Origin: Calditrichota bacterium
Lineage (GTDB): Bacteria; Zhuqueibacterota; Zhuqueibacteria; JANLFK01; Oleimicrobiaceae
Direction of reading: 5' to 3'
Length of the DNA stretch: 37,941 nt
Assembly: GCA_014359355.1 (NCBI GenBank)
Contig: JACIZP010000345.1
Location: 1 to 37,941 of the forward strand
Part shown: piece by piece, positions 13,799-18,823 of the stretch
Layout: the number at the start of each line of letters is the position of its first letter
Numbering within the stretch: position 1 is the stretch's first letter
Translations under genes and position numbers: made by a program
Notes under the pieces: generated by a model
Seen by the model: only the letters and a program-made list of their open reading frames with translations
Database searches by the model: none
What the model was told of the DNA's origin: nothing

Positions 13799-14494
13799 TC
13801 AGAAGCGCATGTTGGCGAACTCCTCATAGAGCGCCAGCACGGCAGGCAGGTACTCCCTGGTCTCGCGCGGCAGCATGCGGTCGTCCCTTCCGCTCCTCAC
13901 CCACAGCGCTGCCCATTTCTCCCCGCCGTTGTACGCCGCCAACCCGCCGTCCACGTCATAGTACTCGATCTGGCTTGCTAAGAAGCGGGCGCCGAGCCGG
14001 ATGTTGTAGACGGGATTGAAAAGCACCTCCTCCGGCGAGCTCCAGTTGAGGCCTTCGTAGCTTGCCAGGAACATGCCAGTGGCAGGCATGATCTGCATGA
14101 GCCCCATGGCGCCGGCCGGGGAGACGATCTCCGGGTCCCAAGTGCCAGCAGTCTCGTGGGTGATGGTCGCGCACAAGAGATCGACGTCGAGATTGGTGTA
14201 CTTCAGGGTCATGTTGTAGATTTCGTTGGCGATCTCATAGCGCTGGCTCGACGGCATCTCCGGATTGTACATCTGGATGATGGCCATCACCTTCTGGATG
14301 TGGTACTGCCGGATGCTGTCGGCATTGAGCGATGCGCGCAGCTGTTGCAGGGACTGCTCCAGCTCTCGCACGCGGTGTCTGGGACCTAAGTCCAGAAGCC
14401 GGAAGAGGAGGCCGCCGGTGGCCAGCAGAGCCACGACGATCACTGCACCGACCGCCACGCGCGTACGCTTGTGGTGTGTCCTCCGATTTGCCAT
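13799..14494 (-). CDS. Membrane-anchored lytic transglycosylase (SLT family 1)
   Basis: 231 residues from the ATG at 14494, preceded by GAGAGGGAGTAG. It cleaves peptidoglycan glycan strands to 1,6-anhydromuramic products. A basic N-terminus (MANRRTHHKRTR) and one transmembrane helix at about 13-33 anchor it in the inner membrane; a short coiled coil follows (about 40-60). The SLT domain carries catalytic Glu114 in ITHETAG, the signature SPAGAMGLMQIMP (125-137), NPVYNIRLGARFLA, and AAYNGG. A longer reading from 14584 is possible but would start inside the predicted leader hairpin. The gene has its own promoter and a structured leader of about 300 bases, so post-transcriptional control is likely. 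Confidence 0.93.
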   Translation of the reverse strand: MANRRTHHKRTRVAVGAVIVVALLATGGLLFRLLDLGPRHRVRELEQSLQQLRASLNADSIRQYHIQKVMAIIQMYNPEMPSSQRYEIANEIYNMTLKYTNLDVDLLCATITHETAGTWDPEIVSPAGAMGLMQIMPATGMFLASYEGLNWSSPEEVLFNPVYNIRLGARFLASQIEYYDVDGGLAAYNGGEKWAALWVRSGRDDRMLPRETREYLPAVLALYEEFANMRF

Positions 14495-14537
14495 TCTACT
14501 CCCTCTCACACTTCTCAGGTACACACAATACACAAAA

Positions 14538-14575
14538 GGCAAGTCGCCCACCGTATGGTTGGTGGCAGACTTGCC
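14538..14575 (-). promoter_or_regulatory. Stem-loop just upstream of the transglycosylase start
   Basis: On the minus strand GGCAAGTC (14575-14568) pairs with GACTTGCC (14545-14538), enclosing an inner CCACC/GGTGG stem. TTTTGTGT follows immediately, then the ribosome site and ATG 40 bases on. It resembles an intrinsic terminator or attenuator in the leader. The perfect 8-bp outer stem is certain; function is inference. Confidence 0.65.
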
Positions 14576-14657
14576 GGTCCTCATGAGCTATCCTCACCCC
14601 CTACGCGTCCTTTCCACAAGCCTCCCACACCTCCACCATCGCAGTCGGGGCAAAAAA

Positions 14658-14726
14658 GAAACCGAGCATTGATGTGAACCGGGATTAGGGGGGTTACCGG
14701 TTTCGGAGTATCAAGCTCGGCTTCTT
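14658..14726 (-). promoter_or_regulatory. Leader RNA structural unit 2
   Basis: A 12-bp outer stem pairs 14726-14715 (AAGAAGCCGAGC) with 14667-14656 (GCTCGGTTTCTT), one G-U pair. An inner 6-bp stem AACCGG/CCGGTT (14702-14697 with 14682-14677) closes a 14-base loop holding six Cs. The 3' arm runs into a T tract (14657-14652), so this unit looks terminator-like. Its core is identical to unit 1 over 27 bases. Confidence 0.6.
14675..14701 (-). repeat. 27-base direct repeat, copy 2 (transcript order)
   Basis: Positions 14675-14701 are identical to 14750-14776 over all 27 bases, offset 75 bases. The repeat contains the apical loop and inner stem of the leader unit and includes a run of six Cs on the transcribed strand. 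Confidence 0.95.
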
Positions 14727-14730
14727 GAAT

Positions 14731-14800
14731 CGTAACCAAGCCTTGAACTTGAACCGGGATTAGGGGGGTTACCGGTATCAGGGGGTCTGGCTCGGTTACG
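14731..14800 (-). promoter_or_regulatory. Leader RNA structural unit 1
   Basis: A 12-bp outer stem pairs 14800-14789 (CGTAACCGAGCC) with 14742-14731 (GGCTTGGTTACG), one G-U pair. The inner stem ACCGG/CCGGT (14757-14753 with 14776-14772) closes the same 14-base loop as unit 2. The unit begins at the predicted transcript 5' end and is separated from unit 2 by four bases. Confidence 0.6.
14750..14776 (-). repeat. 27-base direct repeat, copy 1 (transcript order)
   Basis: Identical to 14675-14701 over 27 bases. The flanks are diverged, about 12 of 19 bases matching on one side, so the shared core is under constraint or recently duplicated. Confidence 0.95.
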
Positions 14801-14805
14801 GTGCA

Positions 14806-14834
14806 AATATACAAAACTTGGCCCCGCGTGTCAA
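14806..14834 (-). promoter_or_regulatory. Sigma-70-type promoter for the transglycosylase gene
   Basis: On the minus strand TTGACA (14834-14829), 17 bases, TATATT (14811-14806). The predicted start of transcription is near 14800, exactly where leader unit 1 begins, giving an untranslated leader of about 300 bases. Confidence 0.82.
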
Positions 14835-14869
14835 GAGTTTTTTTTCGCGAGCGCGCATTTTTTGCAGCT

Positions 14870-16177
14870 CTATTCGAGGCGAATGGTGGCCAGGGTGCGG
14901 AACTGCCCCGGAGAGATCTCCTCTCTGGCCAACCGCCGCACGTCGCGCATCCTCACGGCGATTTGCATGCGCGTCACCTGGGGGTCGCCATAGGAGCCGA
15001 CCTCCAGGAGCACTATGACAGACTCGCCCTCCGGCACGGAGCTGAGTGCTGGGCAGTACCGCCCGAGCAGGTCAACGAGCTCGTTGGCCAAGCTGCGCAT
15101 CTGCTGGTCGCGGGACTCCTTCTCTTTGCGCGCCGCCTCCGCCTTGGCTGTGCGACTCTTGGGCTTGGGGGGTTCAACTGCAGGGCCGGCGGTTGTATCC
15201 CGCGCCACAGTGTCGGCGCGAAGCCGCGCCAGGAGGCCATCGAGCGCCTTCAATTGTTGCATCTGGATTGTGTAGGCTTTCATCGCCTCGGCGTAGCCCT
15301 TCATCGCCTGTTCGAATGCACTCAGGGTGGAGTGCGGGGGCAGGCGCGAGCCGCAGACCAGCACCACACCCAAATCGGGCACGCGCAGGGCACGTGTCGC
15401 CTCGCCAAGGAGATTGCCACCCAAGGAGCTGCGCAGATGGGTATCCAGAATGTCGGCCAGAATGGCCAGCTCGGAGTCGGCTGCTTCCTCGCCCTTTTCT
15501 TCGGTGAGGCGAATGGCGCGCTGCAGCCCTACCAAGGGCGCGCTCCCCTTCCGCAGACTCGTGATGTCGGCGAAACGCGCGGAGGCGATCAGACGGCGGG
15601 TCAGGTCCTTGGACCCCTTTGAGAAGATGGACAACCCCACGGGCTGAAAGTCGACCACCACCGTTACCCGGTGCTCGGGTTGGAGGCCGGTTATGGCCCC
15701 CGCCCATCGGGAGAAAAACGCGAGCAACGCCGTTTTCACCGAGTCCACCGCCGCACGCGCGCTTGCAGGTCTACGCCGCTGGGTGACCTGGTAGTACAGA
15801 GCTGCCACGTCCGGGTACAATTTGCTCCAGGTGGATAGCGCAGCAGTGTCGGGCTGCACTGCATAGCCGGCCCTCTTGCGCAACAGCGATGGCTCGGCCT
15901 TCCGAAGGGATAACGCCGCAGTGTCGGGCTCCACAGCATAGCCAACCAGTGCGTAAGGGACGCTGAAGAGAACTCCATGGCCTTCGAGCCATATCCCTCT
16001 GGTTTGGGTGCGCGCAGAGGGCGCCTCGCCCAGCACGAGACGATCGAGAATCCGCTCCATGGCTCGGAGGTCGGTGCTGGCCGCACTTTGCGCAGTACAT
16101 GCGGGCGGCACTGCCATCTGTCCCACTGTGCCCCAGCCCACAGCAGTGATGGCGCAAAGCCACACCAATCGCTTCAT
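14870..16177 (-). CDS. Exported protein of unknown function
   Basis: 435 residues from the ATG at 16177, chosen because GAGGAG lies seven bases before it. The N-terminus is a signal peptide (KRLVWLCAITAVGWGTVG, cleavage near the Ala-rich CTAQSAAS). Two 12-residue segments, GYAVEPDTAALS (79-90) and GYAVQPDTAALS (104-115), are repeated 25 residues apart. A basic, Ala/Lys-rich segment at about 325-350 suggests a linker, followed by a C-terminal domain with regular beta-strand pattern (SVIVLLEVGSYGDPQVTRMQIAVRMRD). No family was recognised. It is last in the ECF sigma-factor operon, 62 bases after the barrel gene, and is likely periplasmic or envelope-associated. Confidence 0.75.
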   Translation of the reverse strand: MKRLVWLCAITAVGWGTVGQMAVPPACTAQSAASTDLRAMERILDRLVLGEAPSARTQTRGIWLEGHGVLFSVPYALVGYAVEPDTAALSLRKAEPSLLRKRAGYAVQPDTAALSTWSKLYPDVAALYYQVTQRRRPASARAAVDSVKTALLAFFSRWAGAITGLQPEHRVTVVVDFQPVGLSIFSKGSKDLTRRLIASARFADITSLRKGSAPLVGLQRAIRLTEEKGEEAADSELAILADILDTHLRSSLGGNLLGEATRALRVPDLGVVLVCGSRLPPHSTLSAFEQAMKGYAEAMKAYTIQMQQLKALDGLLARLRADTVARDTTAGPAVEPPKPKSRTAKAEAARKEKESRDQQMRSLANELVDLLGRYCPALSSVPEGESVIVLLEVGSYGDPQVTRMQIAVRMRDVRRLAREEISPGQFRTLATIRLE

Positions 16178-17580: not shown

Positions 17581-18237
17581 TCAGTCCCGCAAACCCTGCT
17601 CGTAGACAGCAAGGCGCGCCAGCTCTTCAAGGAAACGGTCTGTGCGGTCCAGCCGGGTGAGGGTGCGAATGTGCAGTTCCTCCAGTCCACGCCCCACCAG
17701 GCCAAGATCAGCTTGGCGCTGCAGCTCGACATCCCGAGCAAACTCCTGGAGGGCACGCGCAAAGTCCGCGCGCTGCCGCTGTTCGCTGGACTGCACCATG
17801 TCCTGGACTGCGGCCAGTGTGGCCCTTTGCAGGGCAAGAACCTCTTCTCGGGTGACTGCCGGGGCCGGACGCCGCCACAGGCTGGCGCTGAACTGCAAGC
17901 TGCCATCTTTGTACGAGACGGTGGTGTTGCTGACCGCAAGACCCACCAGGAGCGCTGCCAGGGCAAAGCCCACGGCCAAGCCCGCACGTTGCCAGCGGCG
18001 CAGGGAGCTCCAGGCGTCGGAGAGCAGCGGTTGTCGTGCAGCGACAAAGGTGAGACGCAGGCCTGGGTCTTGGTCCGGCCAATCAGCTAGCACCTTCGTG
18101 GTGGCCTGCAGCTTGCGCAGTGCCGTCCGACAGGCAGTACAAGCCCGTACATGCTCTTCTAGGCGACGCGCGAGCTCTTCTTCAATCTCCTCGTAGAGGT
18201 AATCTGGAATGTGCTGCTGACACTCATCACATTTCAT
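17581..18237 (-). CDS. Anti-sigma factor, zinc-binding ZAS type
   Basis: 218 residues that would hold the adjacent ECF sigma factor inactive. The N-terminal zinc-finger domain shows Cys3 and Cys6 (MKCDECQQHI) and the HxxxCxxC motif HVRACTAC (His29, Cys33, Cys36). A single transmembrane helix lies at about 86-106 (GLAVGFALAALLVGLAVS), and the periplasmic part is a long charged helical region from about 125 to 218, likely coiled coil. The start ATG overlaps the sigma gene stop by 11 bases, which gives stoichiometric, coupled translation. A longer reading from 18261 is less likely. What signal releases the sigma factor is unknown. Confidence 0.92.
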   Translation of the reverse strand: MKCDECQQHIPDYLYEEIEEELARRLEEHVRACTACRTALRKLQATTKVLADWPDQDPGLRLTFVAARQPLLSDAWSSLRRWQRAGLAVGFALAALLVGLAVSNTTVSYKDGSLQFSASLWRRPAPAVTREEVLALQRATLAAVQDMVQSSEQRQRADFARALQEFARDVELQRQADLGLVGRGLEELHIRTLTRLDRTDRFLEELARLAVYEQGLRD

Positions 18238-18823
18238 GGTCCAACACCTCCTGGGCGACACCCCATTCCTCCAATATCTGGCGCAGCGCCAGCAGGCCGT
18301 GGTACAAGCGCGACTTGACCGTGTTGACCGGCTGCCCCAGCACGTCGGCGATCTCGCGGAACTTCAGGCCCTGATACTGCTTCATGATGATGACCACTCG
18401 CTGCTCTTCGGGTAGCGACAGCACGGCGCGCTTCAACACCGCCGCCAGATGGCTGTTGTGTGCCACGCAATCGGGTCTATCTTCCGGCAAGTCGGGCAAC
18501 TCTGCCGGCAATGGATGGCCGTCCTCTGTCGGGCGCTGCTCGCTGTCTATGGACAACGATGGTCGCCTCCTCTTGAGCTCGTCTCGGCTGAGGTTGAGCG
18601 CGATCTGGTGCAGCCAGGTGGAGAAACATGCCGTGCTCTTCAGGCGCCGCAGGCCCGTGTAGGCGCGAATAAAGGTTTGCTGGGTGACCTCTTTGGCTGC
18701 TTCCGCGGTGCCCAGATAGCGGTAGGCAAAGTTGTAGATCGGCTTTTCCCAGCGCCACACCAGCGTGTTGAAAGCGGCCACATCGCCAGCAAGGAACCGT
18801 TCGATCAACGTCTGGTCATCCAT
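18227..18823 (-). CDS. ECF-type RNA polymerase sigma factor
   Basis: 198-residue sigma-70 family member with only regions 2 and 4. Region 2 is AAFNTLVWRWEKPIYNFAYRYLGTAEAAKEVTQQTFIRAYTGL, with the -10-melting helix reading AKEVTQQTFI instead of the common DAEDVVQETF. A variable, proline- and acid-rich linker (about 95-125) precedes region 4, LPEEQRVVIIMKQYQGLKFREIADVLGQPVNTVKSRLYHGL, which contains the helix-turn-helix for the -35 element. GAGGG precedes the ATG. The gene is first in an operon with its anti-sigma factor and two envelope proteins, so envelope stress or composition is the likely signal. It probably activates its own promoter (18860-18889). Confidence 0.95.
   Translation of the reverse strand: MDDQTLIERFLAGDVAAFNTLVWRWEKPIYNFAYRYLGTAEAAKEVTQQTFIRAYTGLRRLKSTACFSTWLHQIALNLSRDELKRRRPSLSIDSEQRPTEDGHPLPAELPDLPEDRPDCVAHNSHLAAVLKRAVLSLPEEQRVVIIMKQYQGLKFREIADVLGQPVNTVKSRLYHGLLALRQILEEWGVAQEVLDHEM

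What the first reader, a model, noticed from the sequence alone, without database searches (positions are those of the whole stretch)
14658..14800. Tandem covarying hairpin units in the leader of a lytic transglycosylase: possible new cis-regulatory RNA
Seen: the promoter at 14806-14834 should start RNA near 14800. The first 145 bases fold into two units 75 bases apart, each with an outer 11-12 bp stem, an inner 5-6 bp stem and an identical 27-base core with a 14-base C-rich loop. Aligning the outer stems on their shared CCGAGC gives two double compensatory changes (U-A in unit 1 versus A-U in unit 2; C-G versus A-U) and two G-U versus Watson-Crick differences, so pairing is kept while sequence changes. 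Unit 2 ends in a T tract. A downstream UAGGGGG (14603-14597) could pair with the CCCCCUA in either loop, and a second U-flanked hairpin (14538-14575) precedes the start codon. Inference: a tandem riboswitch-like or protein-bound attenuator. I know no described RNA family with this core.
Basis: partly seen in the sequence, partly recalled or inferred. Interest (0 to 1): 0.85.

Follow-up and report, generated by a model that had tools for sequence, protein, structure and literature searches.

The report
Phylum-wide C-rich-loop small RNA family
The two hairpins are a small RNA gene of their own, one copy of a previously uncatalogued RNA family found across an uncultured bacterial phylum (KSB1); in related bacteria the same hairpin ends the gene for ribosomal protein S20 or stands alone, so it is probably a regulator acting at a distance rather than a switch in front of the neighbouring cell-wall gene.

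Summary
Two hairpin units lie at 14658-14800 (minus strand; fold z = -7.4), start where a TTGACA-17-TATATT promoter would start RNA, and end in a T6 tract. It is a new structured RNA family: no Rfam match, 86 copies, 57 of 82 genomes of its phylum (candidate division KSB1), none in about 300 genomes outside. All 18 pairs show two-sided compensatory changes, while the loop CCCCUAA is invariant. It is probably not a leader switch of the transglycosylase. About half of the copies are the 3'-UTR terminator of rpsT (S20), usually convergent with guaB. The others stand alone, with unrelated neighbours on either strand; several begin 8-12 nt after a sigma54-type promoter. In five families the rpsT copy is gone and only a stand-alone copy remains. 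This points to a trans-acting small RNA working through its C-rich loop. The partner is unknown: searches for mRNA or rRNA pairing targets were negative, so I lean slightly to a protein partner over 6C-RNA-like pairing.

The parts
14806..14834 (-). sigma70-type promoter TTGACA-17-TATATT; RNA start expected near 14800
   Evidence: 11 of 12 consensus matches, 0.1 expected; -35/-10 kept in both sister genomes
14731..14800 (-). Unit 1 of the RNA: outer stem, 3-bp stem, one-base bulge, 5-bp stem, 14-nt loop
   Evidence: R2 match 68.9 bits; fold z = -7.4 for both units together; covariation
14758..14771 (-). Unit 1 loop UAACCCCCCUAAUC containing the invariant CCCCUAA
   Evidence: core position; loop conservation
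14657..14725 (-). Unit 2 of the RNA; its outer stem is the stem of the intrinsic terminator
   Evidence: R2 match 73.8 bits, E 1.4e-11
14683..14696 (-). Unit 2 loop UAACCCCCCUAAUC containing the invariant CCCCUAA
   Evidence: core position; loop conservation
14652..14657 (-). T6 tract; expected 3' end of the RNA (about 149 nt in all)
   Evidence: T runs follow 73 of 86 family members

Best explanation
The window carries one gene of a new, phylum-wide small-RNA family. A sigma70-type promoter starts an RNA of about 149 nt at the foot of hairpin 1 and transcription ends at hairpin 2, an intrinsic terminator (sequence-based, not measured). Each hairpin is a covarying stem with a bulge, displaying an invariant single-stranded loop, RAC(U)YCCCCUAA. 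In most relatives a one-hairpin version is the 3'-UTR terminator of rpsT, and could be released as a 3'-UTR-derived RNA; in others it is a stand-alone gene with its own promoter. Because lineages that lost the rpsT copy keep a stand-alone one, the RNA most likely acts in trans. The conserved loop is the working site (inferred). I lean to it binding a protein, as decoy or adaptor in the manner of CsrB-type RNAs, slightly over pairing with mRNAs, because every target test was negative. Coupling to ribosome synthesis (rpsT) or to sigma54-controlled conditions is inferred from promoters.
For: Structure: 18 of 18 pairs with two-sided compensatory changes, 92.4% of cells paired, covariation 0.58 against 0.23 shuffled and at most 0.12 for slid partners (also 22 and 30). 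Loop: CCCCU in 86 of 86, following AA in 84-85 of 86, while stems change. Strand: T run of 4 or more just 3' in 73 of 86, against 16 of 86 with an A run 5'. Distribution: 57 of 82 phylum genomes, all 53 hits in 388 relatives inside the phylum. Two contexts: rpsT 3' UTR and stand-alone. Fifteen genomes of families f4, f7, f10, f12 and f13 have only stand-alone copies; where an rpsT was found in them it ends in other sequence. Promoters: TGGCAC-N5-TTGC 8-12 nt before the hairpin in seven single-unit loci and further upstream in four tandem loci; no rpsT-linked copy scores as high. Conserved island in the genus.
Against: No expression data: 5' and 3' ends, stability and processing are inferred from sequence. 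No protein partner is identified and no protein binding was tested. Twenty-five phylum genomes have no detectable copy, so it is dispensable in some lineages. The rpsT-linked copies could simply be terminators. All pairing tests were negative, but they cover seeds of 7-8 nt or more or whole-RBS averages, and would miss a few short, lineage-specific targets. The A-to-B relocation was read from family-level presence and absence, not from a tree.
Confidence: 0.5

Rival explanations
1. 6C-RNA-like antisense regulator: the C-rich loop pairs with G-rich stretches near mRNA start sites and represses translation; two loops give two binding sites.
For: Architecture of the window copy (two hairpins, six C in each loop, terminator) is that of the actinobacterial 6C/B11 RNA, where either C-rich loop represses an mRNA with a G6 tract in its 5' UTR (PMC10470900). 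In the invariant part of the loop the commonest changes (A/G, C/U) would keep pairing with a fixed G/U-rich partner.
Against: UUAGGGG is not enriched before start codons: 0, 1 and 1 sites in parts of three genomes. The real loop pairs with start regions worse than most shuffled loops. The 12-nt complement in the window's genus occurs only at the RNA itself. Genes with an 8-nt complement in G000 and G002 are unrelated. No UUAGGGG in the 23S rRNA-containing loci examined, no suitable G run at rpsT starts.
Confidence: 0.3
2. The hairpin is only an unusually conserved transcription terminator or mRNA 3'-end stabiliser, mostly of rpsT, with no trans function.
For: About half of the copies directly follow rpsT, and most copies end in a T run.
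Against: Terminators do not need an invariant 7-nt loop. Stand-alone copies start at the hairpin, just after their own promoter, so they terminate nothing else. Lineages whose rpsT ends differently keep the RNA elsewhere.
Confidence: 0.13
3. One reading: tandem riboswitch-like or protein-controlled attenuator in the transglycosylase leader.
For: In the window's genus the transglycosylase follows on the same strand behind the terminator, and no separate promoter for it was found by the sigma70 scan. A transglycosylase also follows the tandem RNA in two f5 genomes.
Against: Most copies are in 3' UTRs or face convergent genes; downstream genes are diverse. f5 transglycosylases have their own sigma54-like promoter. 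No alternative antiterminator pairing is conserved; the UAGGGGG partner is missing in G002.
Confidence: 0.07

Closest known systems
6C RNA / B11 (Rfam RF01066, Actinobacteria)
   Same: Small RNA with C-rich hairpin loops; the window copy, like B11, shows two loops of six C and ends in a terminator.
   Different: No match of the 6C model to the window or its genome; other phylum; most members have one hairpin; invariant CCCCUAA rather than only a C run; linked to rpsT or sigma54; RBS-targeting not supported here.
3'-UTR-derived small RNAs (e.g. GlnZ from glnA, PMC9731577)
   Same: The rpsT-linked copies sit in an mRNA 3' UTR at the terminator; GlnZ-type RNAs are also released from a 3' UTR and tied to RpoN.
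   Different: Here the same RNA also exists as an independent gene in sister lineages; no processing data.
CsrB/RsmZ-type protein-sequestering RNAs (own knowledge)
   Same: Hairpins with covarying stems and an invariant loop motif, sometimes in tandem.
   Different: Loop is C-rich, without GGA; one or two hairpins rather than many; no partner protein known.

Membership tests
6C RNA (RF01066) | Match to the Rfam covariance model | tested here: not met
   No hit at E up to 10 in 14480-14900, none in the window's genome, none in 20 homologous loci at E up to 0.5
6C RNA (RF01066) | Two hairpin loops with runs of about six C | tested here: inconclusive
   Met by the window copy; most family members are single hairpins with 4-6 C
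6C RNA (RF01066) | C-rich loop pairs with G-rich 5' UTR sites | tested here: inconclusive
Riboswitch or attenuator (cis-regulatory leader) | Same-strand downstream gene conserved with the element | tested here: not met
   17 same-strand versus 14 opposite-strand next genes at stand-alone loci, diverse products; rpsT copies lie 3' of the gene
Riboswitch or attenuator (cis-regulatory leader) | Conserved mutually exclusive alternative pairing | tested here: not met
   Only candidate partner UAGGGGG is absent in G002
Riboswitch or attenuator (cis-regulatory leader) | Ligand binding | not testable with these tools
   Needs probing experiments
3'-UTR-derived small RNA | Located at the 3' UTR terminator of an mRNA | tested here: met
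   rpsT in 42 of 82 phylum genomes; S20 confirmed by Pfam. Not true of the window copy, which has its own promoter
3'-UTR-derived small RNA | Released as a separate stable RNA | not testable with these tools
   No transcript data
CsrB/RsmZ | Repeated GGA-bearing hairpin loops | tested here: not met
   Loop consensus is RAC(U)YCCCCUAA without GGA

The most novel reading that the evidence does not exclude
A phylum-wide trans-acting RNA that presents an invariant CCCCUAA loop to an unknown RNA-binding protein and has moved, during evolution, between the rpsT 3' UTR and independent genes under sigma54 or housekeeping promoters: a global regulator linking ribosome synthesis with stress or nutrient signals in uncultured KSB1 bacteria.
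Probability: 0.3. Interest if true: 0.8.

Novelty: new variant of a known kind. Interest (0 to 1): 0.62.

Why it matters
It adds a strongly supported, Rfam-unknown RNA family for a whole uncultured phylum, with a built-in natural experiment: the same hairpin as an rpsT 3'-UTR terminator in some families, as a stand-alone promoter-driven gene in others, and both in yet others. That makes the origin of small RNAs from mRNA 3' ends, and their relocation, directly testable. The invariant loop gives a ready bait for finding a partner protein or RNA in an FCB-group phylum where I found no described regulatory RNAs in the papers searched.

Tried and rejected
Rfam at gathering and permissive thresholds: nothing relevant. 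Exact-core scan of viral contigs: none. Named-genome scan: eight true loci in KSB1/'Calditrichota'/unnamed MAGs plus two chance matches, Actinoplanes L058 and an archaeon L060, rejected because R2 does not match them. Possible mRNA targets: seven-, eight- and twelve-base complements, duplex energies and rpsT start regions, all negative. Ribosomal RNA as a fixed pairing partner: no UUAGGGG. Avoidance of UUAGGGG: counts equal the Markov expectation. Opposite strand as the functional RNA: rejected by the T-run asymmetry and the rpsT orientation. A more sensitive model in the 25 hit-less genomes found only one weak match.

Full report
WHAT IS THERE. On the minus strand, 14800-14658 holds two hairpin units that fold far better than shuffled sequence (-53 against -29.6 +/- 3.2 kcal/mol, z = -7.4). 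A promoter TTGACA-17-TATATT lies at 14834-14806, so RNA should begin at the foot of unit 1. Unit 2 runs directly into T6 (14657-14652), so unit 2 is an intrinsic terminator and the whole is a transcription unit of about 149 nt. No Rfam family matches.

HOMOLOGUES. The loop core with up to one mismatch occurs in 15 of 60 related genomes (1 of 60 for the reversed control). A covariance model from 12 units (R1) found matches in 44 of 63 genomes of the class, including sequences left out of the model. A second model from 37 units (R2) found 57 of 82 genomes of the phylum. In a search of 388 relatives, all 53 positive genomes were inside the phylum, so none of roughly 300 outside it matched. A third model added one weak match among the 25 negatives. 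In the named-genome collection, matches to outer stem plus loop that also match R2 were candidate division KSB1, 'Calditrichota' or unnamed MAGs. The window's genome is therefore a KSB1 (Zhuqueibacterota, PMC11683472) relative; this is inferred from these hits.

STRUCTURE. Across 86 aligned copies, 92.4% of pair cells are standard pairs, all 18 pairs have changes on both sides (308 cells), and the covariation score is 0.58 against 0.23 for shuffles and at most 0.12 for slid partners. The alignment was fitted to the structure and leans towards it, but the first hand-checked set of 12 gave the same picture. The architecture is: outer stem (commonly CCGAGC/GCUCGG), linker or extra stem, 3-bp stem, one-base bulge, 5-bp stem ending GG/CC, and a 13-15-nt loop. 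In the loop CCCCU is found in 86 of 86 copies, followed by AA in 84-85. So stems change while keeping pairing, and the loop does not change: the loop is the likely working site.

WHICH STRAND, AND WHERE IT ENDS. A run of at least four T follows 73 of 86 units, against 16 of 86 with an A run before them. Several of the 13 exceptions are the first unit of a tandem pair.

TWO CONTEXTS. Class A: the hairpin starts shortly after the stop codon of an ORF of about 84 aa, which is ribosomal protein S20 (rpsT), usually with guaB (IMP dehydrogenase) convergent beyond it (S20 and IMPDH confirmed by Pfam in examples). Class B: the hairpin stands alone. Upstream neighbours differ by lineage: LuxR-type response regulator, TLC/MFS transporter, ABC auxiliary lipoprotein and others. 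The next gene is on the same strand in 17 and on the opposite strand in 14 of 31, with diverse products. By genome: 25 have class A only, 17 both, 15 class B only (compiled by hand from the locus lists; two class A assignments, G013 and G042, rest on copies at contig ends, and G006 was read by eye). The class-B-only genomes fall in families f4, f7, f10, f12 and f13, and where an rpsT was found in them it ends in other sequence. A hairpin that mattered only as the rpsT terminator would not need to be kept elsewhere, so this distribution argues for function in trans.

PROMOTERS. In seven class B loci (L021, L042, L046, L049, L098, L103, L109) a sigma54-type element TGGCAC-N5-TTGC (9-10 of 12 matches) ends 8-12 nt before the hairpin, which puts the RNA start at the hairpin. 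Four tandem loci (L015, L037, L038, L107) have it further upstream, before their first short unit. No class A locus scored above 8. The window's genus uses a sigma70-type promoter instead.

THE TRANSGLYCOSYLASE. The downstream gene has an SLT domain. Within the genus, G000 and G002 are about 92-95% identical through the RNA and about 23-37% identical just after the T tract. An SLT gene also follows the tandem RNA in two f5 genomes, but there a separate sigma54-like element (TGGTAC-N5-TTGCA) lies between the RNA's terminator and the gene. A G042 relative has its SLT-like gene about 1 kb further on (by reading its translation). A leader function in the window's genus through read-through is possible but is not the shared role. 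The UAGGGGG that could pair with the loops is present in G001 and absent in G002.

MECHANISM TESTS. If the loop worked like the actinobacterial 6C/B11 RNA, whose C-rich loops repress an mRNA with a G6 tract in its 5' UTR (PMC10470900), complements should gather at start sites. They do not: UUAGGGG occurs 0, 1 and 1 times in the 35 nt before starts in parts of three genomes. The real loop pairs with start regions more weakly than 55-60 of 60 shuffled loops in one genome and 47-59 of 60 in the other. Full complements in the window's genus are only the RNA genes themselves. Eight-base complements in G000 and G002 lie at unrelated genes. The 23S rRNA loci examined hold no UUAGGGG. These tests weaken, but do not exclude, pairing with a few short targets. 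I therefore lean to a protein partner, without direct evidence for one.

VERDICT. Shown: a conserved, covarying RNA family with an invariant loop, confined to one phylum as far as searched, in two genomic contexts, with an own promoter and terminator in the window. Inferred: trans action, the loop as the active site, protein over RNA partner, coupling to ribosome synthesis or sigma54 conditions. Not known: expression, ends, partner, phenotype.

Noticed in passing
window 14538-14575 (-): A second hairpin (GGCAAGTC...GACTTGCC) followed by TTTTGT precedes the likely transglycosylase start codon; its arms are kept in both sister genomes although the surrounding sequence is not. Could be a second terminator or a leader element.
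   Followed up: partly
L015 and L107, between the RNA's T tract and the SLT gene: Sigma54-like element TGGTAC-N5-TTGCA before the transglycosylase gene, so RNA and neighbour may both be sigma54-controlled in family f5.
   Followed up: partly
L067:7-2990: Genes that look like a lipid-transport ABC operon (permease fragment, ATPase, substrate-binding-type protein, auxiliary lipoprotein) directly precede the sigma54-driven tandem RNA.
   Followed up: no
L029:1090-1373 and 457-1098: Group II intron pieces (Rfam) and a reverse transcriptase domain close to a stand-alone copy of the RNA in genome G059.
   Followed up: no
L022:2849-3017: Cobalamin riboswitch match near another stand-alone copy.
   Followed up: no
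window 18467-18512: Only tandem repeat found in the window: 2.2 copies of a 21-base unit, lying within a sigma-factor-like ORF (18227-18823, minus strand).
   Followed up: no
genome G057, contigs C184 and C238: Two contigs begin with the same copy of the RNA at the same position and then differ, perhaps an assembly break at a duplicated locus.
   Followed up: no
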